From Archangium sp. (GTDB lineage: Bacteria > Myxococcota > Myxococcia > Myxococcales > Myxococcaceae), in NCBI GenBank assembly GCA_030695565.1, contig JAUYRZ010000027.1:124001-188000 (forward strand): DNA of 64,000 nt, in the 5' to 3' direction. The position numbers and the translations under genes were made by a program. Below the pieces are notes generated by a model. That model searched no databases. It was not told the DNA's origin and saw only the letters and a list, made by a program, of their open reading frames with translations. The stretch's first letter is position 1. The number at the start of each line of letters is the position of its first letter. This document shows, piece by piece, positions 18,216-63,910 of the stretch.

Positions 18216-21200
18216 TCACGGAACCGTGAGTGAACCCATGAAGCCGAACTCGAAGCTGAGCCCGGCATTGCTGCCGGCGCCGCCGTCGCCGCTGTTCTGA
18301 TCGCAATAGGTCCAGCTGACACCCTGGTTGAGGCTGAACCGATACACGTACCGGTAGCTGCCTGCGCTCGGAGCGATGAACGACGCCTGGTACTCGTCGT
18401 TGTTTCCTGACTGCACGTTGAAGGTCGCGTTGGTCCAGGTCCAGCCCGCTTCGTATTGCGGGTTCGAAGTGGGTAAACCCCAGCCCAGCTGAGCGCGGAC
18501 GTTGGGATTGCCTCCCGCGGCCTCGGTGACGCCGACCTCGAAGAGCTGTCCAAAGACGAGTGGAGTCGCCGCGCCCGCGGCAACGCTCAAGGTGAGCGGG
18601 AACTGGATGGTGCAGTAGTCGGCCTCGAGCGCGGCGTTCGACTCATTCTGCGCCGTACAGGCGCAAGCCACCGCCGCTGATGCGCTGTTGCGTGCAGAGG
18701 GAGTGGCCGTGGCGAAGTCTGCCCCGTTGTTGTTCACGTCAGCGCAGCCACTTTGTGCGCGCACAGCGGCGGTGCTCGAGGTCAGAGCGGGCACTGCCGC
18801 GACACCTTCGAAGCAGTTGGCCGTTCCGTAGCCCACGAAGTCGAGCACGGTCGGCCCCAGGGGGCAGGCGCCGCTCAGCGTGACGGTGTTGCTGTTGACG
18901 AGCGCGAGTTTGCCGTTCGCGCCCGCGATGTCCGTAGCCGCAGTGAGATCCGGCGTGGGCAACGACGCGCCCACGGCTCCGCCGCTGAACAGTTGAATCA
19001 AGTAGTACCCCCCCGGCTGAATCGAGCCGGTGAGGTTCAGCTTCGTCCAGGTGGTGCCGGCGGTGCTGGCGTACTGAAGCGACATGGCTGCCAGGCTGAC
19101 GGCGGTCGTGCCGCGGTTGTGCAACTCGACGAAGTCATTCTTGTAGGTCGCGCCGGTAAGTCCGCCTCCGCCGTTGAACTGGCTGATGACCACCGATCCG
19201 CTGCACGTGTTGGGGCTCGTCGTGGTGAACCCCGTCGGCTGGGTGAACTGCGCCGCCAACGCCGTGCCGCTCGCACCCTGCGCCGCCGTGGTGACCCGAA
19301 TCCTATAGCTCCGGTTCACCAGCAGACCCGGCGCCGCGGTCAACGTCGCGACGGTGTTGCCCCCCGACATCGTGGGCGCAGCCGACGAGAAGGCGATGCA
19401 GCTGGCGAAGTTGTCCTGGGAGACCTGAATCGAGCCACTGCACGCACCCGCCGCCGTCTGGCCGGTGAGCGTCGCGGCATTCATTGCGGTGCTGAACGTC
19501 ACCACGATCGTCGGGCCCGCGGTCGGCGTGCTGCCATCAGCAGGCGTGGTGCTTGCCACCTGGGGCGGGCTGATGCACGCGCCGGCGCCGTCGCACACCG
19601 AGCCACCGTTCTGACTGCACGCCGTGCCTGCCGCAGCGGGCGGGTTCGACGGCACACCTGCGTTGCACACGTCGAAGGTGCACTGATTCCCATCGATCGG
19701 GGCATCGGTATTGTCATTTGCAGCGGCGACGTTGCCGACCCCGTCGCACTGGTTCACCTTGCAGTCGCCCGCGTTCTGCGACGAGACGGCAGTTCCCGCC
19801 GCCGTGAAGTTGGAGCCACACGAATTGCCGTTGCACGTGCGCGCCCGGCACTCGGTGTCCTGGCCCGGGCATTCGCTGGGCGAGTTGCACTCCACGCACT
19901 GGCCGGCCGAGCACATCGTGCCGCCACCCTGATTACACGCTGTGCCGTTTGCCCTGGCCGGGTGCGAAGGGACGCTGCCGCTGCAGACGTCATCGGTGCA
20001 CTGGTTGCCGTCATCGGGCGGGACATCGGCGCTCGAGGTCACCGAGACGATGCTGCCCGCGCCGTCGCACTCGTTGGTCTTGCAGTCGCCCGCAGTCTGC
20101 GAGCTGACCGGCGTACCTGCAGAGGTGTTGCTGAAGCCGCACGATCCGCCATTGCAGGTCCGCGTCTGACACTCGGTATCGCTGCCGGCGCACTGGGCGG
20201 GGGCATTGCACTCGGAGCACGCGCCGGAGCCGTTGCAGTACGCGCCACCGTTCTGGTTGCACGCCGTGTTCACCGGCTGGCTGGGGAAGTTGGGCACGCC
20301 CGCGCTGCAGGCCTGCGCCGTGCACTGGTTTCCATCATCCGCAGGAACGTCGGAGTTCGCGTTCACCGCGACGATGCCGCCCGCGCCGTCGCACTCGTTC
20401 TGCTTGCAGTCGCCCGCGGTCTGAGTCGTGACCGGCGTACCCGCGGCAGTGAACGAGAAGCCACACGAATTGCCAGCGCAGCTCCGCACGCTGCACTCGG
20501 TGTCGGTGCCCGGGCACTGCGCGGGGGCGTTGCACCCGACGCAGGTGCTCGCGCTGCTGCAGTAGCTGCCGCCGTTCTGATTGCATGCGGTGTTGGCCGC
20601 AGCAGGCGGGAAGCTGGGCACGCCCGCGGTGCAGACCTGGTTGGTGCACTGATTCCCGTCATCGGCGGGGAGATCGCCGTCGTCGTTCGTCGACACCACG
20701 TTGCCTGCGCCGTCACACTGGTTGCGCTTGCAGTCGTTCGTGGTCTGTGAGGCCGTGGTCGTGCCCGCCGCGGTGTTGTTCACGCCGCAGGTGTTCGCGG
20801 TGCAGGTGCGCACCTGACACTCGGTGTCGGTGCCGGCGCATTGCGTGCCCACGTTGCAGCTGACGCAGGTGCCAGCGCCGTTGCAGAAGCTGCCACCGCC
20901 CGGACCACACGCGGTGTTGATGGCGGTGGGCGGAAAGCTGGGTACACCCGCGTTGCAAGTCTGCGCGGTGCAGAGGTTGCCGTCGTCGGCGGGCAGATCC
21001 GAGTTCAACGCGACCGAGACGATCCCACCCGCGCCGTTGCAGCGGTTCTGCTGGCAGTCACCCGCCGTCTGACTCGCCGTCACCACGGTGTTGGCCGCGA
21101 AGGCGACGCCGCAGACGTTGTTGGTGCAGGTGCGCGTCTGGCACTCCGTGTCGCTGCCGGGGCACTGGCTGGCCGCCGTACACGCCACGCAGTTGCCGCC

Positions 21201-22547
21201 CGCGCTGCAGAAGGCGCCGCCGTTCTGGGTACACACCGTGTTCACCGGCACCGTGGGGAAGCTCGCCACGCCAGCGGTGCAGACCTGCGAGGTGCACTGG
21301 TTGCCGTCATCGAGGGGCAAGTCGGTGTTGTCGTTCTGGTTCACCACGTTGCCGCTGCCGTCGCAGACGTTCTTCTTGCAGTCGTTGGCCGCCTGCGCCG
21401 CGACCGCGGTGTTCGCCGCGGTGAAGGTGACGCCGCAGACGTTGGCCACGCACGTGCGCGCCGTGCACTCGGTGTCGCTGCCGGGGCAATCGCTGGGCGC
21501 GTTGCATCCGACGCACTGGCCGCCGCTGCACACGCCCGCGGTGCCGCAGGCGGTACCGGCGGTGACGTTGGTGAAGGTGGGCGCGCCCGCAGCGCAGCTG
21601 TCGGTGGTGCAGCTGTTGTTGTCGTTGGGGAGATCGGTGTCGTCGTTCGCGGGCGTGATCGCGCCCGCTCCGTCGCAGACGTTCTTCTTGCAGTCGTTCG
21701 CGGTCTGCGAGGCGACCGGCGTGTTCTGCGCGGCGTAGCCGAAGCCGCAGACGCCGGCCGTGCAGGTGCGCTGCTGGCATTCGGTGTCGCTGCCGGGGCA
21801 GTCGGTGAAGGAGACGCAGGTCACGCAGGCGCCGGCACCGTCACACAACGCGCCGTTGTTCTCGGTGCACGCCGTGCGCGCGGTGACGGGCGGGTTCGAC
21901 GGCACACCGGCGGTGCACACGTCGTTGGTGCAGCTGGTGACGTCGACGAGCAGGTCGGCGTCGTCGTTCGCGACCGCGGGGGCGCCGTTGCCGTCGCACT
22001 GGTTCACCTTGCAGTCGCCGGCGATCTGCATCGCGAGCGCCGTACCGGCCGCGACGTTGTTCACGCCGCAGGTGCCGGCCACGCAGGTGCGGGTCTGGCA
22101 TTCGGTGGAAGCGCCGCAATCGGCAGCCGCGATGCAGGTCACGCAGCTGCCGAGGCCATCACACTTGAGCAGGCCGGCGGTGCCGCAGGCCGACTCGGCG
22201 GCGCGGGGCGGGTGCGAAGGCACGCCGGCGGTGCAGAGGTCGTCGGTGCAGTCCTGCGCGTCGTTGGGAACGTCCGTGTCATCGTTCACCACGACGGCGC
22301 TTCCGGTGCCGTCGCACTGGGTGGCCTTGCAGTCGCCAGCCGTCGCAACGCCGGTGGCCGTACCGCTGGCGACGTTCGCCGTGCCGCAGACCTTGTTCAC
22401 GCAGGTGTTTTCCACGCAGGGGCCCGGAGCGGCGCCGCAATCAGAGGCGGTCGCGCACGGCGTGCCCATCGGTTCCGGAGTGCAGCCAAGGCCGCTGAAG
22501 GTGAATGCGGTGAACATCACGACGACGGCGGCATGGGTACGAAACAT
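18216..22547 (-). CDS. Giant cysteine-rich lipoprotein with nine ~107-aa repeats, Ig-like and lamin-tail domains
   Basis: A 1443-residue exported lipoprotein (signal peptide with lipobox GLGC). Residues ~30-990 contain nine cysteine-rich repeats of about 104-109 residues. Each has a motif like CPGSDTECQTRTC, a GDCK..xCDG segment, a DLPADDGNQCT segment and a GAGTCVxC segment. Next comes a bacterial Ig-like/SbsA-type domain (STTPADGSTPTAGPTIVVTF), then a lamin-tail domain (VVISQFNGGGGLTG... NDFVELHNRG) and a beta-rich C-terminal domain. Probably a surface-exposed adhesin or matrix protein rigidified by disulfides. Faces the MopE-like gene across pabAB. Confidence 0.85.
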   Translation of the reverse strand: MFRTHAAVVVMFTAFTFSGLGCTPEPMGTPCATASDCGAAPGPCVENTCVNKVCGTANVASGTATGVATAGDCKATQCDGTGSAVVVNDDTDVPNDAQDCTDDLCTAGVPSHPPRAAESACGTAGLLKCDGLGSCVTCIAAADCGASTECQTRTCVAGTCGVNNVAAGTALAMQIAGDCKVNQCDGNGAPAVANDDADLLVDVTSCTNDVCTAGVPSNPPVTARTACTENNGALCDGAGACVTCVSFTDCPGSDTECQQRTCTAGVCGFGYAAQNTPVASQTANDCKKNVCDGAGAITPANDDTDLPNDNNSCTTDSCAAGAPTFTNVTAGTACGTAGVCSGGQCVGCNAPSDCPGSDTECTARTCVANVCGVTFTAANTAVAAQAANDCKKNVCDGSGNVVNQNDNTDLPLDDGNQCTSQVCTAGVASFPTVPVNTVCTQNGGAFCSAGGNCVACTAASQCPGSDTECQTRTCTNNVCGVAFAANTVVTASQTAGDCQQNRCNGAGGIVSVALNSDLPADDGNLCTAQTCNAGVPSFPPTAINTACGPGGGSFCNGAGTCVSCNVGTQCAGTDTECQVRTCTANTCGVNNTAAGTTTASQTTNDCKRNQCDGAGNVVSTNDDGDLPADDGNQCTNQVCTAGVPSFPPAAANTACNQNGGSYCSSASTCVGCNAPAQCPGTDTECSVRSCAGNSCGFSFTAAGTPVTTQTAGDCKQNECDGAGGIVAVNANSDVPADDGNQCTAQACSAGVPNFPSQPVNTACNQNGGAYCNGSGACSECNAPAQCAGSDTECQTRTCNGGSCGFSNTSAGTPVSSQTAGDCKTNECDGAGSIVSVTSSADVPPDDGNQCTDDVCSGSVPSHPARANGTACNQGGGTMCSAGQCVECNSPSECPGQDTECRARTCNGNSCGSNFTAAGTAVSSQNAGDCKVNQCDGVGNVAAANDNTDAPIDGNQCTFDVCNAGVPSNPPAAAGTACSQNGGSVCDGAGACISPPQVASTTPADGSTPTAGPTIVVTFSTAMNAATLTGQTAAGACSGSIQVSQDNFASCIAFSSAAPTMSGGNTVATLTAAPGLLVNRSYRIRVTTAAQGASGTALAAQFTQPTGFTTTSPNTCSGSVVISQFNGGGGLTGATYKNDFVELHNRGTTAVSLAAMSLQYASTAGTTWTKLNLTGSIQPGGYYLIQLFSGGAVGASLPTPDLTAATDIAGANGKLALVNSNTVTLSGACPLGPTVLDFVGYGTANCFEGVAAVPALTSSTAAVRAQSGCADVNNNGADFATATPSARNSASAAVACACTAQNESNAALEADYCTIQFPLTLSVAAGAATPLVFGQLFEVGVTEAAGGNPNVRAQLGWGLPTSNPQYEAGWTWTNATFNVQSGNNDEYQASFIAPSAGSYRYVYRFSLNQGVSWTYCDQNSGDGGAGSNAGLSFEFGFMGSLTVP
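19560..22480 (-). repeat. Coding tandem repeats, about 0.32 kb each, nine units
   Basis: Inside the giant gene, the DNA for the TDTEC motif recurs at about 19.85, 20.17, 20.50, 20.82, 21.15, 21.47 and 21.78 kb, with intervals of 312-326 bases. The two upstream units are more divergent. The copies are not identical, so the array looks old and degenerated. Confidence 0.75.
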
Positions 22548-22604: not shown

Positions 22605-24182
22605 TCAACGCAGTGCGCCGAGCTTGAGACGCACTTCTTCCAACTCCGCGTGGGGATCGGAGTCCCAGGTGATGCCGCTGCCGACGCCGTAGCGCCAGGC
22701 GGATCCAATGCGCTCGGCGGTGCGGATCAGCAGCGCCACGCGCGCGCTGGAATTTTCCTCCAGACCGAGTGCTCCGCAGTAGGCGCCGCGGGCGGTCGGC
22801 TCCAGGGCCGCGATGTGTTGCAGCGCGGCTTCTCTCGGCGCGCCCGTCACCGAGCCCCCCGGGTGCACGGCGGCGAGGACTTGCTCGAGCGTGGTTTGCG
22901 CTGGCAGTTCACCTTCCACGTCGGCCACCGCCTGCACCACGTAGGGCAGCTCGATCATTCGCCGGTCGTTGACCACGTGCACCGAGTTCGGCTCGCAGAG
23001 GCGGTGCAGATCGTCGCGCAGGAGATCGGTGATCATCGCCAGCTCGGCGCGATCTTTTTCACTGCGCTCCAACCAGAGGCGCTCAGAAGGCGGGGCGGTG
23101 CCCTTCATCGGCTCGACGTGGATCAACCGATCATTCGTTTCGACGAGCAGCTCGGGGCTGGCGGAGACCAACTCCAGCTGCGGCGACTTCACCCAGGCGG
23201 CGAAACGGGGCACGGCCTTGCGGCAGAAGGCGCTGAGGAGGTGGGCTCCGCTTTCGCAGGTCAGGGTCGCTCGCAGCGTGAGGTTCACCTGGTAGACGTC
23301 GCCGGCCGCGATGTGCTCGCGGATCTTCGTCACGCCTTCGAGGAAACCTGTTTCGTCGAGGTCGACTTTCAAGGGCGTGAACGGGACGTCGAAGATCAGA
23401 TCGACTGCACGCGCTCGGCCGGTGAGGCGCTGGGGCTTGCCTTCGGCGGTCGCGTACCAGAGGGCGGTTTGCTGATCAGGGGACTCTTCGAAGAGTGTCC
23501 AGTGTCCGTGCTTGGAGAAGCCCGGGGCGAGGAGGGCGAAGGTGTCCTGGGTTTGAAGGCTCGAGAGTTTGAGGGGTGATGGTGCAGGTGTTGGCCCCTC
23601 ACCCAGACCCTCACCCCCCTGGCGCAGGGAGAGGGGATCTCGGTTGAAGAAGGCGGCGATGAGTTCGCGGCCCCTGGGCGTTCCGAAGGAATCAGCGTGG
23701 AACTGGATGCCGGCCATCGGCAACGACTCGTGCTCCACCGCCATCACCGTTCCATCGCTCAAACGGGCGACCACCTTCAGGGGGGCGGTGACGTCCGTGA
23801 GCGAGAGCGAGTGGTAGCGCATCACCTCGAAGTCACCGGCCGGGAAGCTGCGGCTTTCGGTGAAGTGGGCGGTGGCTCGTTTGCCGTGCGACGGCGTGGA
23901 GCGGACGAGCGTGCTCCCGAACGCCAGCCCCAGTGCCTGATGCCCCAGACACACGCCGAGAAACGGCAAGCGGCGCCTCGCCACCTCGCCCACCAGCTCG
24001 ACCAATCCGGCCCTGATCGGGTCCGTCGGGCCCGGGCCCATCACCACCACGTCGGCGCGATCCAGCGCGCTGAGGGCCTGCGACGCGCTGATCAGCTCAA
24101 TCTCAGATCGTGAGAAAGGCAGCGCATCCACGACGTTCCACGAGAAAGAATCGTGGTTTTCGATGAAGAGCACACGGGCCAC
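22605..24182 (-). CDS. Fused aminodeoxychorismate synthase (PabA glutaminase + PabB)
   Basis: A 525-residue fusion that would make 4-amino-4-deoxychorismate from chorismate and glutamine for folate. Residues ~1-190 are a class I glutaminase (nucleophile Cys in GVCLGHQALG; HADS where the family has HPES). Residues ~240-525 are the chorismate-binding domain with MKGTAPP (the Lys favours PabB over the Ala of TrpE), HPGGSVTGAPREAALQ, YCGALG and SGITWDSDP. The linker QGGEGLGEGPTPAPSP is translated from a dispersed repeat. The GTG at 24182 begins the glutaminase domain. Confidence 0.88.
   Translation of the reverse strand: MARVLFIENHDSFSWNVVDALPFSRSEIELISASQALSALDRADVVVMGPGPTDPIRAGLVELVGEVARRRLPFLGVCLGHQALGLAFGSTLVRSTPSHGKRATAHFTESRSFPAGDFEVMRYHSLSLTDVTAPLKVVARLSDGTVMAVEHESLPMAGIQFHADSFGTPRGRELIAAFFNRDPLSLRQGGEGLGEGPTPAPSPLKLSSLQTQDTFALLAPGFSKHGHWTLFEESPDQQTALWYATAEGKPQRLTGRARAVDLIFDVPFTPLKVDLDETGFLEGVTKIREHIAAGDVYQVNLTLRATLTCESGAHLLSAFCRKAVPRFAAWVKSPQLELVSASPELLVETNDRLIHVEPMKGTAPPSERLWLERSEKDRAELAMITDLLRDDLHRLCEPNSVHVVNDRRMIELPYVVQAVADVEGELPAQTTLEQVLAAVHPGGSVTGAPREAALQHIAALEPTARGAYCGALGLEENSSARVALLIRTAERIGSAWRYGVGSGITWDSDPHAELEEVRLKLGALR
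23594..23639. repeat. Dispersed palindromic repeat, copy 3 (inside pabAB)
   Basis: An inverted copy of the family lies within the coding sequence between the glutaminase and PabB domains: GCCCCTCACCC, then CCCTCACCC and CAGGGAGAGGG. It is read in frame as a Gly/Pro-rich linker. Confidence 0.75.
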
Positions 24183-24278
24183 GTGGGGCTTGTAACCCCG
24201 GCGACGCGAAAACCCGAGTAGCGGGTTTGCCCACACGTCATGCCATCGGCTACAGGGTCCGTCTCCCCGGGGATCCTG

Positions 24279-27200
24279 ATGACTCGCAGTCTGATCGTGT
24301 TGGCCGCACTCGCGCTCAGCGCATGCGGTGGAAAAGAAGAGCCACTGACTCCGGTGGTCGACGCGGGTTACCTGCTGCCCACCAGCGTGTGTCTCGACAA
24401 CGACGGTGACGGCTTCTCCGGCACGGGCGACTGCACGGGTGAGGCGTTGATCGACTGCAACGATCGCGAGCCCAGCGCCTTCCCCGGCGCGCTCGAGCTG
24501 TGCAACGGCATCGATGACAGCTGCAACGGTCTGATCGACGAAGGCCTGCCGGTGGTCGCGTACTACAGCGATGAAGACGGCGATGGCGTCGGCGCGGTGA
24601 AGACCGGCGAAGGCTGCAAGAGCCCTCCGACCGGCAGCGTCACGCAGTCAGGTGACTGCAACGATCGAGACGCCACCATCCGCCCCGGGCAGGCCGAGAC
24701 CTGCAACGGCATCGATGACGACTGTGACGGCACGCGCGACAACGGGCTTCCGTTTCAAGACTTCTACGTCGACGCAGACGGCGACGGCTTCGGCGCTTCG
24801 ACCTCGACGCCGGTGAACTCGTGTCAGACCGCCGTGATGGGCCGGGTGAGCAACCCCGGTGATTGCAACGACGCGAACCCCACCATCAAGCCGGGCGCGG
24901 TCGAGCTCTGCAACAAGATCGACGACAACTGCGATGGCCAGATGGACAACGGGATCGCCTTCGTCAGCTACTACCCCGACGTCGACGGTGACGGCTTCGG
25001 TGACGCTTCCGCGCAGTCCGAGAGCAGCTGCGCGCCGATGCCCGGCAAGGTCGACAACAACAGCGATTGCAACGACGCGATCGCCACGGTGAAGCCGGGT
25101 GCTCCCGAGACGTGCAACGGGGCCGATGACGACTGCGACACCCAGACCGACGAAGGCCTCACCTTCATCTCCTACTACGTCGATGGTGATGGCGACGGCT
25201 TCGGGGCCGCGGGCTCCACGGCGCAGTCTTCGTGCATGCCGGTGCCGGGCAAGGTCACGAATGCGAACGACTGCAACGACACCTCGGCGATGGTGAAGCC
25301 GGGCGCGACCGAGACGTGCAACGGCGTCGACGACGACTGCGCGGGCGGCATCGACAACGGGCTGACCTTCGTCTCGTACTTCACCGATGCTGACGGAGAT
25401 GGGTTCGGCGCCTCGACCGCGTCAGCGCAGTCTGCGTGCGCGCCCGTCGCCGGCAAGGTGACCAACAACCAGGACTGCAACGACGCCAACCCGTCGGTGA
25501 AGCCGATGGCCCCCGAGAGCTGCAACGCGGTCGACGACGACTGCGACGGGCAGGTCGATGAAGGACTCACCTTCGTCGACTACTACCCCGATGCAGACGG
25601 CGACACCTTCGGCTCTGCCATCGCCGCCGCGCAGAGCAGCTGCACGCCCATCGCCGGCCGGGTGACCAACCGCACCGACTGCAACGACGCGAACGCCGCC
25701 GTCGCCCCCGGCCGCCCGGAGATCTGCAATCAGCTCGACGACAACTGCGTGGGCGGCATCGACGAAGGCCTGCCGACGCAGAACTATTACGTCGACGCCG
25801 ACCTGGACGGCCGCGGCCGCCAGGGTTCGACGCCGCTCGCCTCGTGCGGCCCGGTCAGCGGGCGGGTCACCTCGAACGACGACTGCAACGACTCGAACGC
25901 CTCGGTGTTCCCGGGCGCGGCCGAGATGTGCAACGGCATCGACGACAACTGCGACAACCTCATCGACAACGGCGTCGCCACGCAGAACTACTACGTCGAC
26001 GGCGACTCCGACGGCTTCGGCGCGACGGGCTCGGTGGCCGTGGCTTCCTGCAGCGCGGTGGCGGGGCGGGTGACCAACAGCCTCGACTGCAACGACATGA
26101 ACTCGGCCATCAAGCCGACGGCCACCGAGATCTGCAACCAGATCGACGACGACTGCGACCTGGCGATCGACGAAGGCCTCACGGTGCTCTCGTACTATCC
26201 AGACCTCGACTCCGATGGTTTTGGGGCCAGCGGCGCGGTGGCGCAGACCTCGTGCGCGGCGGTCAGCGGCAAGGTGACCAACAACACCGACTGCAACGAC
26301 GGCAACGTGAACATTCGCCCGGGCGCCACCGAGATCTGCAACGGCATCGACGACAACTGCGTCAACGGCATCGACGAAGGGCTGCCCACGCAGAGCTACT
26401 ACGTCGATGCTGACAGCGACGGTTTCGGGGCCGCTGGCTCGACGCCGGTGGTGTCGTGCGGCGCGCAGGCGGGCCGGGTGACCAACAACACCGACTGCAA
26501 CGACGCCAACTCGTCCATCAAGCCGACCGCGACTGAGCTGTGCAACGGCGTCGACGACAACTGCGCGGGCGGGGTGGACGAAGGCAACCCCGGCGGTGGC
26601 GGGGCGTGCAGCACCGGCCAGTCGGGCATCTGCGCGACGGGCACGTTGCGGTGCCAGTCGGCCACGATCTCCTGTGTGCGCAACGTCGCCGCGCCGGGCA
26701 CCGAGAGCTGCAACGGTCTCGACGACGATTGCGACGGCATCACCGACGAGGGCTACGCCGGGTTGGGCACCACCTGCTCTGCCGGCGTGGGCGCGTGCGC
26801 GCGTTCGGGCACCCAGGTGTGCAACGCGGGCGGCACCGGCGTGGTGTGCAACGCCACCGCGGGCAACCCCACCGCGGCGGCCTGTGACGGTTCAGACAAC
26901 GACTGCGACGGCATCGTCGATGAGCCGGTGCTCAGCAGCACCACCAACGTCAGCACCACCGCCTTCCAGGATGTCGAAGTGCGCCCCTTCTTCTATGGCA
27001 CGTGCGGCGGCGGGGTGACCGGTACGGGCACCGACCCGCTGTACGCCGGCGCGCTCCTGATGGGCGGGAGCACCACGGGCATCACCCTGCAGCGGCTCGA
27101 CACCGCGGGCCTCCCGAACGGGGGGAGCACCTCAATCACCTCGCTCAGCTACACCGACGTCGACTTCGCGCAGGTGGGCGATGGCTGGCTGGTGGCGGGC

Positions 27201-28175
27201 ATCTGGGCGAACAACAACGCCGAGATCGACCTCTACCTGACCGACATCAACGGCGCGCAGCGGGCGCTCAAGTACACCCAGTTCGTCGGCACGGGCGCGC
27301 CCCTCCTCGACTCGTTGCGCGTGGTGCGGGGCAACGGCCGCCGGGTCACCTTGCTGTGGAGAGAGAACGGCGTGGGCATCAAGATGGCCCAGGTCGAAGG
27401 CTGCAACACCACCGGCACCACCTGGGAGATCCGCCCCCCGGGCTGCGGTACCGGGCCGCTCACCTCGATGACCATCGCCGCGTCGACCACCGCCGTGCCG
27501 GGCCTCGCGGCTGACTCGGCGCACGTCGACTGGGATGTTCAGACCTGCGTGCCCGTGGCCACCCAGCGGCGCATCGCCGTCTCGTACCTCACCACCGCGA
27601 CCAGCCTGAACTTCTTCCGGGTCAACGAGAACGGCACCACCAAGGACACGGAGATCGTCGCCCGCACCGAGACCGCGCCGCGGGTGGTGGGCGAGCCCGA
27701 CCTCACGTACTTCAAGGACTCGTCGGGCGCGGATCAGTACTTCCTCGCCTACGTGATGCGCGATTCGGGAGCGAGCACGCCGCAGGCCGACCTGCAGTAC
27801 TGGCTCACCAACGATCCGTTCTACAACTTCGCGTACTTCGAGTTCGCCACGCAGAACGGGGTGAACTCGATCTCCCGGCCGCGGACGAGCGCGACGGCCA
27901 CCGGCATCTGGATGTCGGCGGTGCGCTACGTGGCCGATGCGTCGACGTTCAAGAAGCAGGTAATGACGCGCACGACCAACCTGCTCGGCGTGCGCACCCC
28001 GGCGGGTTCGGCCGTGGAGCTCTCGGCGACCTCGGGTGCGTGCGCAGCAGACCCCGCGTGCCGGCCGGGCGACAAGAGCGCGTTCACCAACTGGGCGCCG
28101 TTCTCGAAGCTGTACTACGCGGGCAGCGGGTCGACGCCTGCGGGCACGTTCTCGAGCACGTTGACCTGCAACTAA
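24279..28175 (+). CDS. Giant MopE-like metal-binding-repeat lipoprotein
   Basis: A 1298-residue lipoprotein (signal peptide MTRSLIVLAALALSACGG). Residues ~60-770 hold eleven repeats of 68 residues built on CNDxNxxIKPGAxExCNGIDDNCDGxxDEG, each followed by a DxDxDGFG calcium-type loop; two shorter copies follow. These match the metal-binding motif family first described from MopE. The C-terminal ~430 residues form a probable beta-propeller-like or adhesive domain with no clear family (TFQ/FYGTCGGGV... to SSTLTCN). Probably a calcium- and disulfide-stabilised outer-surface protein. The ATG at 24279 begins the signal peptide. It ends beside repeat copy 4. Confidence 0.88.
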   Translation: MTRSLIVLAALALSACGGKEEPLTPVVDAGYLLPTSVCLDNDGDGFSGTGDCTGEALIDCNDREPSAFPGALELCNGIDDSCNGLIDEGLPVVAYYSDEDGDGVGAVKTGEGCKSPPTGSVTQSGDCNDRDATIRPGQAETCNGIDDDCDGTRDNGLPFQDFYVDADGDGFGASTSTPVNSCQTAVMGRVSNPGDCNDANPTIKPGAVELCNKIDDNCDGQMDNGIAFVSYYPDVDGDGFGDASAQSESSCAPMPGKVDNNSDCNDAIATVKPGAPETCNGADDDCDTQTDEGLTFISYYVDGDGDGFGAAGSTAQSSCMPVPGKVTNANDCNDTSAMVKPGATETCNGVDDDCAGGIDNGLTFVSYFTDADGDGFGASTASAQSACAPVAGKVTNNQDCNDANPSVKPMAPESCNAVDDDCDGQVDEGLTFVDYYPDADGDTFGSAIAAAQSSCTPIAGRVTNRTDCNDANAAVAPGRPEICNQLDDNCVGGIDEGLPTQNYYVDADLDGRGRQGSTPLASCGPVSGRVTSNDDCNDSNASVFPGAAEMCNGIDDNCDNLIDNGVATQNYYVDGDSDGFGATGSVAVASCSAVAGRVTNSLDCNDMNSAIKPTATEICNQIDDDCDLAIDEGLTVLSYYPDLDSDGFGASGAVAQTSCAAVSGKVTNNTDCNDGNVNIRPGATEICNGIDDNCVNGIDEGLPTQSYYVDADSDGFGAAGSTPVVSCGAQAGRVTNNTDCNDANSSIKPTATELCNGVDDNCAGGVDEGNPGGGGACSTGQSGICATGTLRCQSATISCVRNVAAPGTESCNGLDDDCDGITDEGYAGLGTTCSAGVGACARSGTQVCNAGGTGVVCNATAGNPTAAACDGSDNDCDGIVDEPVLSSTTNVSTTAFQDVEVRPFFYGTCGGGVTGTGTDPLYAGALLMGGSTTGITLQRLDTAGLPNGGSTSITSLSYTDVDFAQVGDGWLVAGIWANNNAEIDLYLTDINGAQRALKYTQFVGTGAPLLDSLRVVRGNGRRVTLLWRENGVGIKMAQVEGCNTTGTTWEIRPPGCGTGPLTSMTIAASTTAVPGLAADSAHVDWDVQTCVPVATQRRIAVSYLTTATSLNFFRVNENGTTKDTEIVARTETAPRVVGEPDLTYFKDSSGADQYFLAYVMRDSGASTPQADLQYWLTNDPFYNFAYFEFATQNGVNSISRPRTSATATGIWMSAVRYVADASTFKKQVMTRTTNLLGVRTPAGSAVELSATSGACAADPACRPGDKSAFTNWAPFSKLYYAGSGSTPAGTFSSTLTCN
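24456..26590 (+). repeat. Coding tandem array, 204-bp period, eleven units
   Basis: The TGC of each CND motif falls at 24456, 24657, 24864, 25068, 25272, 25476, 25680, 25884, 26088, 26292 and 26496. From the third copy on, spacing is exactly 204 bases. The units differ in sequence, so the constant length is maintained by selection or recent conversion, not by recent duplication alone. Confidence 0.9.
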
Positions 28176-28180
28176 CTGTG

Positions 28181-28217
28181 TCTCCCTCTCCCTTCGGGAG
28201 AGGCTTGGGGTGAGGGC
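28181..28217. repeat. Dispersed palindromic repeat, copy 4
   Basis: CCTCTCCC (28185-28192) pairs with GGGAGAGG (28196-28203) across a TTC loop, and the tail CTTGGGGTGAGGG follows. The tail ends four bases before the GTG start of the 2OG oxygenase gene. Confidence 0.8.
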
Positions 28218-33942: not shown

Positions 33943-34593
33943 ATGGCTTCACTCTTTCGCTACGTCGCGCTGGGCGATTCGTCGGGCGTCGGCGTGGGTT
34001 CGGGCAACGACGGCGGGTATCCCGAGCGGCTCTACAGGAGGCTCAAGGCGCACGGCGTCCCGGCCGGCATCCTCAATCTCGCGCAGAGCGGCGCGCAGTC
34101 ACGCGACGTCTTGCGGCTCCACGTGCAGCGCGCCGCGGAGAAGCAGCCTGCGCTCGTCACGGTGGGCATCGGCGCCAACGATCTGTGGCGCCTCGTGTCG
34201 GCTGAGGAGTTCAGCGACAACCTTCAAGCCATCGCCGAGGTCCTGCAGCGCAGCGGCGCGCGGGTGGTGGTGAGCAACCTGGTCGATCTCGGCCGGGCGC
34301 CGGCGGCGAAGATGGCGCAGTCGTGGCTGGGCATCACGCCGCAGATGATCACCGAGCGGGTGCTGCTCTTCAACGCGCGCATCGCGAAGCTCGGCGAGCG
34401 GCCTGGCTTCGAGGTGGTCGACCTCTTCGGCCCCTCACACGCAGAGCTGAGCGGCCCCACCGGCTACTTCAGCGGTGACGGCTTTCATCCCTCGGCGCAC
34501 GGCTACGATCGATGGGCCGAGCTGGCCTGGCCGGCAGTGCAGCGAGCCTCTGGTCTCCCTCTCCCTGCGCCAGCGGGGAGAGGGTCGGGGTGA
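33943..34593 (+). CDS. SGNH/GDSL-family hydrolase with repeat-encoded C-terminus
   Basis: A 216-residue esterase or lipase-like hydrolase with all four blocks: ALGDSSGVG (nucleophile Ser), LAQSGA (Gly), GIGANDL (Asn) and DGFHPSAHGY (Asp and His). No signal peptide is evident, so it is probably cytoplasmic. The final ~12 residues (LPLPAPAGRGSG) and the stop codon come from the first half of the composite repeat at 34549-34672, so the true ancestral end probably lay near VQRASG. A good terminator follows at 34641. Confidence 0.88.
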   Translation: MASLFRYVALGDSSGVGVGSGNDGGYPERLYRRLKAHGVPAGILNLAQSGAQSRDVLRLHVQRAAEKQPALVTVGIGANDLWRLVSAEEFSDNLQAIAEVLQRSGARVVVSNLVDLGRAPAAKMAQSWLGITPQMITERVLLFNARIAKLGERPGFEVVDLFGPSHAELSGPTGYFSGDGFHPSAHGYDRWAELAWPAVQRASGLPLPAPAGRGSG

Positions 34594-34672
34594 GGGGCCC
34601 GACTTCGAACTCCGAGAGCCCCTCACCCGGCCTGCGGCCGACCTCTCCCCGCGTCGCAGGGAGAGGTTTTTT
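34549..34672. repeat. Composite dispersed repeat, copy 5 (about 124 bp)
   Basis: Two inverted half-units. The first (34549-34598) is CTCCCTCTCCCTGCGCCAGC with GGGGAGAGGG and tail TCGGGGTGAGGGG. After a ~20-base spacer the second (34618-34672) is CCCCTCACCCGGCC, CGACCTCTCCCC and CAGGGAGAGG. A very similar composite lies at 48394-48521. Confidence 0.85.
34641..34672 (+). terminator. Rho-independent terminator within the composite repeat
   Basis: ACCTCTCCC (34641-34649) pairs with GGGAGAGGT (34659-34667), followed by six Ts at 34667-34672. It ends the transcript of the SGNH hydrolase and lies next to the convergent stop codon of the FAD gene. Confidence 0.8.
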
Positions 34673-36962: not shown

Positions 36963-37011
36963 GCCCCTCACCCTCACCCTGACCCTCTCCCGAACGAAGG
37001 GAGAGGGAGAC
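36963..37011. repeat. Dispersed palindromic repeat, copy 6
   Basis: CCCTCTCCC (36983-36991) and GGGAGAGGG (36999-37007) with a GAACGAA loop, preceded by CCCCTCACCCTCACCCTGA, the reverse complement of the usual tail. It lies between two convergent genes. Confidence 0.8.
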
Positions 37012-41510: not shown

Positions 41511-41887
41511 TGTTCTCCCTCTCCATGCGAAGCGGGGAGAGGGCCGGGGTGAGGGGCGCGGCTCTGGTGCTCGTCATGAGCACCGCTGGCCTGGCCTGCA
41601 GCGGGCCAGGCGCTCTGGACGCGATGCGACTTGCAGATCGTATTGGGTGGGCGTGCTTTCTCGTCTCAGTGGTGGTGACCGGAGCAGCCATCATCAAGGG
41701 CTTGCCGTTCCGATCGTCGCTCGCCTGGGTCGCAGCACTGGTCGGCGTGGTCGTGCTGCTCGGGCACCCAGCGGTTTGGGTGAGCGCGTACATCGGCGAT
41801 TGCGGGAGCACGAGACAAACACTCGCGCCAATCGCCACCGTGCTGCACGCATTGGCGGTGGGCTTCGTGATTTCTCGGAAGCCGTGA
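41510..41887 (+). CDS. Small membrane protein with repeat-derived N-terminus
   Basis: A ~125-residue protein with three hydrophobic segments (IGWACFLVSVVVTGAAII, SLAWVAALVGVVVLLGHPAV, APIATVLHALAVGFVIS). The N-terminus MFSLSMRSGERAGVRGAAL is coded by repeat copy 7. The next residues (ALVLVMSTAGLACSG) could be a lipoprotein signal with a LAC box, so the repeat would supply the charged n-region. The start is uncertain: ATG 41510 overlaps the ilvE stop, ATG 41525 lies in the repeat, and ATG 41576 gives a shorter form. No Shine-Dalgarno is seen at any of them. Function is unknown. Confidence 0.6.
   Translation: MFSLSMRSGERAGVRGAALVLVMSTAGLACSGPGALDAMRLADRIGWACFLVSVVVTGAAIIKGLPFRSSLAWVAALVGVVVLLGHPAVWVSAYIGDCGSTRQTLAPIATVLHALAVGFVISRKP
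41512..41558. repeat. Dispersed palindromic repeat, copy 7
   Basis: CTCCCTCTCC, ATGCGAAGC loop, GGGGAGAGGG and the tail CCGGGGTGAGGGGC. It overlaps the start of the small membrane-protein gene. Confidence 0.8.
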
Positions 41888-41932
41888 GGCCCTCACCCTG
41901 ACCCTCTCCCAGAGGGCCCAGAGGGAGAGGGA
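41888..41932. repeat. Dispersed palindromic repeat, copy 8
   Basis: Inverse orientation: CCCTCACCCTGACCCTCTCCC then AGAGGGCCC and AGAGGGAGAGGG. It lies between two convergent genes, right after the stop of the small membrane-protein gene. Confidence 0.8.
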
Positions 41933-48393: not shown

Positions 48394-48521
48394 TCTGGTC
48401 TCCCTCGCCCTGCGAAGCGGGGAGAGGGTCGGGGTGAGGGGCCGTCGAAGCTCCGGAGTCGGGCCCTTACCCGGCCTCCGGCCGACCTCTCCCCCTCGCG
48501 CCCCTCGCGCAGGGCGAGGTC
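48394..48521. repeat. Composite dispersed repeat, copy 9 (about 128 bp)
   Basis: The same two-part composite as 34549-34672: CTGGTCTCCCTCGCCCTGCG, AGCGGGGAGAGGGTCGGGG and TGAGGGG, a ~20-base spacer, then an inverted half ending GCAGGGCGAGGTCT. It lies between convergent genes and touches the stop of the minus-strand gene. Confidence 0.85.
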
Positions 48522-62318: not shown

Positions 62319-63143
62319 ATGCACGGGAAGGTCGCCATCGTCACGGGGGCAAACACGGGTCTGGGGTTCGAGACGGCTCGCGGCCTGCTCGAAAAGGGTG
62401 CCACGGTCGTTCTCGGCTGCCGTGATCTCGAGAAGGGCGAGAAGGCACGCGCGGAGCTCGTCGCGAGCACGGGCAATCAGGCCGCAACCGTGATGCTGGT
62501 CGATTTGGCCAACCTCGCGCGGCTGCGAAACTTCGCTGCGAAGTTCGAGGCCCAGTTTCAGCGGCTCGATCTGCTCGTTCACAACGCCGGGGTCTGGCCG
62601 CGCACCCGCCGCAAGACGGTGGATGGTTTCGAGCTGACCCTGGGCGTCAATCACCTGGGGCCGTTCTTCCTCACGCACCTGCTGCGCCCGATGCTCGAGC
62701 GCAGTGCGCCTTCGCGCGTGGTGGTGGTGACCTCGTCGTTGCACATCAGCGCCGCGATCGACTTCGAGGATCTGCAGTTCAAGGTGCGCAAACACCAGGG
62801 CGGCATCGCGTACGGCCAGTCGAAGCTGTGCAACGTGATGTTCACCCACGCGCTGGCGCGCCGCCTCGAAGGCAAGGGTGTCACGGTCAACTCGGTGCAC
62901 CCGGGTGTGGTGGCGACCGAGCTCACGAGAGAAGCGCCCGCACGTGCAGCCCCGGTGCGCGGGCTGCTCACGCCTCGAGAAGGTGCGGTCGGCTCGCTCC
63001 ACCTGGCGACCTCGCCCGAGCTCGACGGCGTCAGTGGCCGCTACTTCGAAGGTACGGTGGAGAAGACGCCTTCGAACTTCAGCCAGGATGTCGAGGCGCA
63101 AGAGCGCCTTTGGGCGATGTCGCTGGCGCTGCTCAAGCTCTAA
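62319..63143 (+). CDS. Short-chain dehydrogenase/reductase
   Basis: A 274-residue Rossmann-fold oxidoreductase with TGANTGLGFETARGL, HNAG, a Ser in VVVVTSSLH, catalytic YGQSK and a substrate-binding loop. It is of the retinol dehydrogenase/Oxr type, similar in plan to the SDR at 57302-58156; the two may be paralogues. It starts 60 bases from the divergent AlkB-like gene and ends convergent with the methyltransferase, overlapping by four bases. Confidence 0.92.
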   Translation: MHGKVAIVTGANTGLGFETARGLLEKGATVVLGCRDLEKGEKARAELVASTGNQAATVMLVDLANLARLRNFAAKFEAQFQRLDLLVHNAGVWPRTRRKTVDGFELTLGVNHLGPFFLTHLLRPMLERSAPSRVVVVTSSLHISAAIDFEDLQFKVRKHQGGIAYGQSKLCNVMFTHALARRLEGKGVTVNSVHPGVVATELTREAPARAAPVRGLLTPREGAVGSLHLATSPELDGVSGRYFEGTVEKTPSNFSQDVEAQERLWAMSLALLKL

Positions 63144-63910
63144 GTGTCCCCCTCTCCCTTCAGGCCCTTCAGGAGAGGGTTGGGGTGAGGGCCGAGCAGC
63201 CTGTGTCGCTGCATCGAAGCCCCCGCCATGCGCCTGGGCTCCTTCAGCCGGCGAGCCCTGAAGAGCAAATTGTGCGGAGTCACCGTGGGAGCGACGAACG
63301 GAACCACCGTCGTCTCCCAGCCGGCAGCTTCGAGCCGCAGCGTGCGTTCACCGTCGACGAAGGCGTGAAGGAAACGTTTCTGCACCTCGGAGTGGCCGGG
63401 CATTCCCAGCTCGTCAGCGCGTTGTTTCGCGGTCGCCCACGAAGGAATCGTCGCGCCGTAACAACACGGCACCAGCAGCAGCCACTTCGCCTCGCACGCC
63501 AGCGCAGCGTCGATGACCGCGTCTGAAGCAGGCCCGCACGCGTGGAGCGCAGTGACGATCGCCGGGCTCCTCGGCCAGAACGAAGGCTCCGCCACGTCGC
63601 CGTGATGCAGCTCGATCTTCGCAGCGCGGGTGAGCTTGCGCATCGCGTGCCTCACATCAGCCAGGCGCTTCTCTTCGCGCTCGATGACCACCAGGTTCTC
63701 GAACCCCAGCAACTCGACGGCCAGCAGGCCCAGGTACGACTTGCCGGCGGCGACGTCGACCAGCGTTCCTTCGCGGCCGAGCCGCGCGAGCTCATTGAGC
63801 AACGCCGCGACCTCGACCGCCTTCTTCAAATCTTCCCGGCGCAGTGACGTGCCTGAGGCGTCGATGAACATCGACTGCAGTTTTGCTTCGACGTCGGCGG
63901 GCGTGACCAC
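63140..63910 (-). CDS. SAM-dependent methyltransferase with repeat-encoded C-terminus
   Basis: A 256-residue methyltransferase-like protein: the SAM motif LVDVAAGKSYLGLLAVELLG, then an acidic residue in VVIEREEKRLADV and VTALHACGPASDAVI. A GC-rich LVPCCYGATIPSW is typical of the class. The last ~19 residues (LLGPHPNPLLKGLKGEGDT) are encoded by repeat copy 10; the older end was probably near ASMQRHR. The start at 63910 is GTG. Substrate is unknown; a related family modifies tRNA or other RNA. Confidence 0.84.
   Translation of the reverse strand: MVTPADVEAKLQSMFIDASGTSLRREDLKKAVEVAALLNELARLGREGTLVDVAAGKSYLGLLAVELLGFENLVVIEREEKRLADVRHAMRKLTRAAKIELHHGDVAEPSFWPRSPAIVTALHACGPASDAVIDAALACEAKWLLLVPCCYGATIPSWATAKQRADELGMPGHSEVQKRFLHAFVDGERTLRLEAAGWETTVVPFVAPTVTPHNLLFRARRLKEPRRMAGASMQRHRLLGPHPNPLLKGLKGEGDT
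63145..63193. repeat. Dispersed palindromic repeat, copy 10
   Basis: CCCTCTCCC, TTCAGGCCCTTCA loop, GGAGAGGG and the tail TTGGGGTGAGGGC. It lies inside the C-terminal coding region of the minus-strand methyltransferase and follows the stop of the SDR gene. Confidence 0.82.

What the first reader, a model, noticed from the sequence alone, without database searches (positions are those of the whole stretch)
23590..23645. Repeat inserted in frame as the linker of a PabA-PabB fusion
An inverted copy of the dispersed repeat lies exactly between the glutaminase and chorismate-binding domains. It is read as a Gly/Pro-rich stretch (QGGEGLGEGPTPAPSP). This shows the element being used as protein-coding linker sequence at a domain boundary.
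Basis: partly seen in the sequence, partly recalled or inferred. Interest (0 to 1): 0.5.

Follow-up and report, generated by a model that had tools for sequence, protein, structure and literature searches.

The report
Dispersed DNA repeat as enzyme linker
A short DNA repeat present in hundreds of copies in this bacterium lies in frame as the predicted flexible linker between the two halves of a folate-pathway enzyme, and related species carry the same repeat in loops and linkers of other conserved proteins; it is a new, well-documented case of a known phenomenon.

Summary
Window 23593-23635 is a copy of a ~43-nt palindromic repeat (618 genome sites with at most 1 mismatch; 2 for the reversed pattern), in frame as PLSLRQGGEGLGEG between the GATase and chorismate-binding domains of a PabA-PabB fusion. 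Five of six genomes of the genus carry it at this junction, in one orientation but several reading frames. The sixth, G001, is fused without it and has no exact core copy in its genome, but its gene has a TAG near the start. Outside the genus 15 of 16 distinct close loci have separate pabA and pabB; the other, G018, is fused without the repeat. So the fusion probably came first and the repeat colonised its linker. The repeat usually sits just behind stop codons (28 of 43 within 12 nt; null mean 9.5). In-frame copies also occur in an EpmA loop (3 of 18 aligned genomes), the RecG linker, and a PabB hairpin of one relative. At the shared EpmA site the repeat DNA is more alike than silent sites allow, so copies are renewed, homogenised or constrained. 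In-frame palindromic repeats are known (Rickettsia RPEs; GTAG/CGTC REPs); this family lacks those tags and its genome has no detected Y1 transposase. Translation is inferred.

The parts
22605..24173 (-). pabAB fusion gene (GTG start called at 24173; frame open to 24236)
   Evidence: ORF, Pfam and NCBIfam, codon-model gene call
23646..24167 (-). PabA-like glutamine amidotransferase domain (GATase)
   Evidence: Pfam PF00117 residues 24-197 of P0001
23593..23635 (-). dispersed palindromic repeat copy, in frame as PLSLRQGGEGLGEG; interdomain linker
   Evidence: the repeat finder I2; place in the gene; the only pLDDT<50 segment of the model is residues 180-194
22623..23351 (-). PabB-like chorismate-binding domain
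   Evidence: Pfam PF00425 residues 296-538 of P0001
34552..34599 (+). repeat copy at the 3' end of GDSL-lipase-like gene 33943-34593, which ends on the TGA inside the repeat (tail LPLPAPAGRGSG)
   Evidence: Pfam PF13472
18162..18204 (+). repeat copy
28182..28217 (+). repeat copy behind the stop of 24240-28175
   Evidence: outer end approximate
36971..37010 (-). repeat copy
   Evidence: outer end approximate
41511..41557 (+). repeat copy
41889..41931 (-). repeat copy
48396..48443 (+). repeat copy
63151..63192 (+). repeat copy overlapping the 3' end of a predicted minus-strand gene 63140-63910 (tail GPHPNPLLKGLKGEGDT)
   Evidence: outer end approximate

Best explanation
The linker of this PabA-PabB (aminodeoxychorismate synthase type) fusion is made from a copy of a REP-like palindromic repeat that is multiplied in the genome. 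The repeat most often lies directly behind stop codons, 5' arm first. Its consensus has no stop in the three reverse frames and in two of three forward frames, so when it lies in or is read into a coding sequence it yields short Gly/Pro/Ser/Arg-rich peptides, probably disordered, that loops and linkers tolerate. pabA and pabB are adjacent or overlapping separate genes in most close homologs; in this genus they were most likely already fused when the repeat colonised the junction, and the frame was kept by selection on the PabB domain downstream. Shown: position, frame, recurrence in five species, absence in G001, similar in-frame copies in other genes. Inferred: translation, disorder, order of events, and that copies at such sites are renewed or homogenised.
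For: Same element, same orientation, at the junction in G000, G002, G003, G004, G005 (0 of 300 dinucleotide shuffles reach the score, for each); G001 and G018 linkers are at shuffle level. Linkers of 57, 78, 60, 72 and 96 nt, all in frame, although the 5' arm is read in three frames and the 3' arm in two. Outside the genus 15 of 16 distinct close loci have separate genes, the pabA stop ending 9-24 nt past the matched PabA end. In G000 no in-frame ATG/GTG/TTG lies from 60 nt before the linker to 198 nt into PabB. G001 is sister to the other five in two trees (ultrafast bootstrap 86, SH-aLRT 87; 78 and 96.1) and has 0 exact core copies. Presence/absence elsewhere: EpmA loop insert in G000, G003, G004 and not in the 15 other aligned rows; a reverse copy in the PabB hairpin of G004, not in G000, G003, G005. 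The only pLDDT<50 segment of the model is 180-194; element residues are 180-193. Stop proximity 28 of 43 against null mean 9.5, largest 18 in 2000 placements.
Against: No expression or protein data. The pabAB flanks cannot be aligned across species, so insertion versus gradual takeover is open. G001's gene, the key to the order of events, has an in-frame TAG in its N-terminal motif (locus L035, base 1537; sequence error or decay not resolved), although its linker and PabB frame are open; G001 is 79% complete in 1100 contigs, and neither tree branch reaches the strong-support mark. With 3 mismatches G001 still has 37 sites against 10 for the reversed pattern, as do repeat-poor G018 (50 to 15) and G009 (58 to 15). 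G005 and G002 have an in-frame GTG inside the linker and G003 a TTG 15 nt into PabB, so separate initiation is not excluded there. G002's gene is split over two contigs. TIGR00553 (pabB) is the best NCBIfam match but below its cut-off (228 against 328 bits). Low pLDDT may partly reflect the unalignable linker.
Confidence: 0.75

Rival explanations
1. The repeat made the fusion: it landed behind the pabA stop in the unfused operon, the stop was lost, and reading through the repeat in an open frame joined pabA to pabB.
For: Repeats sit just behind stops in the same orientation. Five genes of the sampled 788 kb end on a TGA inside the repeat; for the two of these with an ortholog on the one G003 contig held, the G003 gene still stops 0 and 7 nt before its own copy. 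The junction copies lie near where outgroup pabA genes stop.
Against: G001 is fused with a repeat-free linker and has no exact core copy; G018 of another genus is fused without it too; G001 branches outside the other five. The TAG in G001's gene weakens this somewhat.
Confidence: 0.19
2. One old insertion is kept because its DNA, RNA hairpin or peptide is functional, rather than renewed. (This rival concerns the age of the copies, not the order of fusion, so the odds are not exclusive.)
For: The 3' arm is read in one frame in G000/G003/G004 and in another in G005/G002, which fits descent. EpmA element codons in G000 and G003 share A/T third bases at 4 of 9 four-fold sites against 1.46% over 174 ortholog pairs, as strong DNA constraint would also give.
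Against: The pabAB copy folds no better than shuffles (z +0.32); loops differ between species and the 5' arm frame shifts by compensating length changes.
Confidence: 0.2
3. The similarity is chance low complexity in a GC-rich genome, or the gene is not translated through.
For: GC-rich simple composition; Gly/Pro linkers are common (recalled).
Against: 618 genome sites against 2 for the reversed control; shuffles 0 of 300; overall frame kept in all five genomes with unequal linkers.
Confidence: 0.03

Closest known systems
GTAG- and CGTC-tagged REPs, including intragenic REPs (Di Nocera et al. 2013, PMC3733652)
   Same: Short high-copy palindromes near the 3' ends of ORFs, supplying stop codons, some in frame inside ORFs including DNA repair and tRNA synthetase genes; once at about the same site in two species (Xanthomonas recB). 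The paper itself suggests flexible linkers or loops (section 15 read whole, other passages).
   Different: This family has no GTAG or CGTC excess at its ends, no Y1 transposase found in its genome, and lies in Myxococcota; 'myxococc' and 'sorangium' do not occur in that paper's main text (its supplements were not seen).
Rickettsia palindromic elements (RPE; Ogata et al. 2000, known here only through PMC10969869 and PMC3733652)
   Same: Palindromic repeats inserted in frame in genes of conserved proteins.
   Different: RPEs are about 150 bp by PMC10969869 (passage) and CGTC-tagged by PMC3733652 (passage); this repeat is about 43 nt and untagged.
4-amino-4-deoxychorismate synthase, PDB 8hx6 (702 aa)
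   Same: Its chorismate-binding part is the best PDB match of the window protein (E 1.7e-54).
   Different: That it is a natural PabA-PabB fusion is recalled; its linker was not compared here.

Membership tests
REP (GTAG/CGTC-tagged) | short palindromic repeat in high copy | tested here: met
   618 sites in 8.5 Mb; arms CCCTCTCCC and GGGAGAGGG; RNA fold z -2.04, -1.73 and -0.86 for three other window copies, +0.32 for the pabAB copy
REP (GTAG/CGTC-tagged) | GTAG or CGTC tetranucleotide at one end | tested here: not met
   GTAG 1, CTAC 0, CGTC 4, GACG 0 of 54 copies; random places 1.1, 1.3, 5.1, 5.9
REP (GTAG/CGTC-tagged) | RAYT (Y1 tyrosine transposase) in the genome | tested here: not met
   PF01797: none in G000. 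In 4 of 10 other genomes 13 hits; the 4 of these held as loci (2-3 kb each) contain no element
REP (GTAG/CGTC-tagged) | predominantly extragenic, close to 3' ends | tested here: met
   43 of 54 good copies intergenic with two called neighbours, 28 of these within 12 nt behind a same-direction stop
Rickettsia palindromic element | in-frame insertion into ORFs of conserved proteins | tested here: met
   pabAB, epmA, recG
Rickettsia palindromic element | about 150 bp length and CGTC end | tested here: not met
   about 43 nt; no CGTC excess
MITE | target site duplication flanking the element | tested here: not met
   direct matches between the 10-nt flanks of 54 copies are no longer than at random places
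PabA-PabB fusion (aminodeoxychorismate synthase) | GATase plus chorismate-binding domain in one ORF | tested here: met
   Pfam, both over cut-off
PabA-PabB fusion (aminodeoxychorismate synthase) | PabB equivalog score | tested here: inconclusive
   TIGR00553 is the best match but 228 bits against a cut-off of 328
PabA-PabB fusion (aminodeoxychorismate synthase) | ADC synthase activity | not testable with these tools
   needs an assay

The most novel reading that the evidence does not exclude
Certain protein loops and linkers are permanent landing sites: repeat copies there are repeatedly replaced or overwritten at DNA level (re-insertion or gene conversion from the hundreds of genomic copies), so that the linker sequence of enzymes such as PabAB, EpmA and RecG is renewed by a DNA process instead of evolving by point mutation.
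Probability: 0.35. Interest if true: 0.7.

Novelty: new member of a known kind. Interest (0 to 1): 0.45.

Why it matters
It gives a repeat family with natural presence/absence sets in conserved genes, including a genus member without exact copies of the repeat, so it can be tested whether selfish repeats supply usable linkers, how genes survive them, and whether copies in coding sites are renewed. It also warns that PHPNPLP- or GEGRGEG-like peptides in predicted proteins of such genomes are repeat-derived.

Tried and rejected
Rfam scan of 23400-23800: one match, below the family's cut-off and of a kind that makes no sense here. A RAYT as the mover: none in G000; 13 Y1_Tnp hits in 4 of 10 relatives, of which the 4 loci held contain no element. 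MITE with target duplication: not seen. REPIN-like inverted second unit: only 7 of 54 copies have one within 60 nt. Literature, search listings only unless said otherwise: the core sequence with repeat and palindrome (6 papers, none on this family by title), REP with gene fusion and stop codon (1, a Pseudomonas genome paper), the peptide NPLPEGEG (0), Myxococcus with interspersed palindromic repeats (1, a CRISPR review), RPE, REP in coding with RAYT (18, 10 listed), REP with linker (1,445, 10 listed), PabAB fusions (5). That peptides like these are common in predicted proteins of other bacteria is recalled; only touched it. Variant diagnosis (GAGGGTC against GAGGGCC): G000 T 37, C 2; G003 C 13, T 6; in G005 78 of the 98 listed sites with at most 1 mismatch have C (counted by hand). 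The G005 junction copy is of C type, which alone is weak evidence for independent insertion. Synteny with one G003 contig: 187 orthologs, element near or in the gene in both 7, G000 only 15, G003 only 18, neither 147 (p 0.014); neighbouring genes share elements, so this p is too small. A RecG remnant in G003 is degenerate and was not counted. Phylum scan: 10 of 97 genomes have the exact 20-mer, G000, G013 and G132 with more than 6 copies.

Full report
WHAT IS THERE. The minus-strand ORF 22605-24236 encodes a PabA-like glutamine amidotransferase (residues 24-197) and a PabB-like chorismate-binding domain (296-538) in one frame. Between them, 23593-23635 is a copy of a dispersed repeat, 93% complementary to 34557-34599. 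The consensus, drawn by eye, is CTCCCTCTCCC-loop-GGGAGAGGGTCGGGGTGAGGGGCC with variable loops. The window has 10 core matches with up to 2 mismatches against 0.30 expected; the genome (G000, 8.5 Mb, 134 contigs) has 618 with up to 1, against 2 for the reversed pattern. The element encodes PLSLRQGGEGLGEG; TPAPSP follows it.

RELATIVES. Of 60 relatives searched with the protein, 56 match; of 96 family genomes including the own one, 16 match at E 1e-60 or better. All six genus genomes held are fused (G002 on two contigs), and so is G018 of another genus, with a 213-nt linker. Of 16 distinct close loci outside the genus, the other 15 (G006, G007, G009, G022, G030, G115, G116, G117, G119; G041, G043, G056; L085, L087, L088) have separate genes, the pabA stop ending 9-24 nt past the matched PabA end. 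Seven further loci are the same records again (one search checks L079-L084 and L086); more distant homologs with the other gene order or gaps over 400 nt were dropped. The element is at the junction of G000, G002, G003, G004 and G005 in one orientation, with linkers of 57-96 nt, all multiples of three, the 5' arm read in three frames and the 3' arm in two. G001 and G018 linkers score like shuffles.

ORDER OF EVENTS. G001 is the outer branch of the genus in the PabAB tree (ultrafast bootstrap 86, SH-aLRT 87) and in an EpmA+RecG tree (78 and 96.1). It has no exact core copy in 4.8 Mb (79% complete); with 3 mismatches in a 20-mer it has 37 sites against 10 reversed, like the repeat-poor G018 (50 to 15) and G009 (58 to 15). 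Its pabAB reads open through linker and PabB but has an in-frame TAG in the N-terminal motif. Exact copies elsewhere in the genus: G000 332, G002 222, G003 133, G004 135, G005 19; in G005 a one-base variant prevails. The simplest history is fusion first, repeat later. The alternative, that a repeat behind the pabA stop made the fusion after stop loss, is not excluded.

WHERE THE REPEAT USUALLY SITS. In 788 kb of G000 with genes called by a codon model, 75 sites (up to 2 mismatches) were found; 43 of the 56 intergenic ones have a same-direction gene upstream. Of 54 good copies (up to 1 mismatch, 5' arm found) 43 are intergenic with two called neighbours; the other 11 were left out of this test. 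In 28 of the 43 the 5' arm begins within 12 nt behind a stop of the same direction, against 9.5 on average and at most 18 in 2000 random placements in the same spacers; the 3' end lies within 12 nt of a convergent stop in 9. Five genes end on a TGA inside the repeat. For the two with an ortholog on the G003 contig held, the G003 gene stops 0 and 7 nt before its own copy: stop loss with read-in, seen before and after.

OTHER CODING COPIES. Of 8 sites inside called genes, four are well-formed copies (up to 1 mismatch with a 5' arm) in three genes: pabAB, epmA and recG, the last with two; the other four lack an arm or have 2 mismatches and may be chance. EpmA (TIGR00462, 357 bits, cut-off 287) and RecG (NF008168, 972 bits, cut-off 718) are identified. 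EpmA: 26 of 26 genomes match; I aligned 18, and 3 (G000, G003, G004) have the insert, in a loop whose length also varies without it in others. RecG: 26 of 26 match; I aligned 14 and scanned the DNA of 7: copies lie in the linker of G000 (2), G002, G012 and G013, at different places, none well-formed in G003, G004 or G005. G012 and G013 belong to other genera. In G004 the pabAB gene carries a second, reverse copy in a hairpin of the PabB domain, absent from G000, G003 and G005.

AGE OF THE COPIES. Over 174 ortholog pairs of G000 and G003, 65.1% of 30105 four-fold sites with the same residue share the third base, and 1.46% share an A or T; within epmA it is 92 of 160. At the shared EpmA element 4 of 9 such sites (hand-aligned, chosen after seeing them) share an A or T (binomial P 5.5e-6). 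So the element DNA there does not age like its surroundings: parallel insertion, gene conversion, or constraint on the DNA. This is the most interesting open point.

STRUCTURE. An AlphaFold2 model from 25 aligned rows has mean pLDDT 88.1 and pTM 0.63; the only stretch below 50 is residues 180-194, and the element residues are 180-193. A flexible linker is the natural reading, though unaligned linkers get low confidence anyway.

KNOWN OR NEW. PMC3733652 (section 15 read, other passages) reports REPs near 3' ends, giving stop codons, and inside ORFs; PMC10969869 (passages) summarises Rickettsia RPEs. The phenomenon is therefore known. The family tested here fails the GTAG/CGTC tag and the transposase criteria, so I do not file it as such a REP, though it behaves like one. 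No paper on this family was noticed in the listings, some of them capped; the library holds only openly licensed papers.

Noticed in passing
window 33943-34593: GDSL-lipase-like gene (PF13472) whose last residues LPLPAPAGRGSG and stop codon come from the repeat.
   Followed up: partly
window 63140-63910 (-): Predicted methyltransferase-like gene (PF13679) that reads through a repeat copy of the opposite strand near its end (GPHPNPLLKGLKGEGDT).
   Followed up: partly
window 18216-22547 and 24240-28175: Two large Cys-rich tandem-repeat proteins (mostly 324-nt and 204-nt periods) flank pabAB on both sides.
   Followed up: no
G000:C114:110534-111499 and L240, L241: EpmA with a repeat-encoded loop in three species of the genus, absent from the 15 other rows aligned.
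   Followed up: yes
G000:C16:6440-9031: RecG with two repeat copies in its linker; copies at other places in RecG of two other genera (L223, L224).
   Followed up: yes
L076 4069-4152: Second, reverse repeat copy inside the PabB hairpin of G004.
   Followed up: yes
L035 base 1537: In-frame TAG in the N-terminal motif of the G001 pabAB gene; error or decay not resolved.
   Followed up: partly
genome G132 (same phylum, family f21): The 20-mer core occurs 33 times, often as inverted pairs about 90-190 bases apart, REPIN-like.
   Followed up: no
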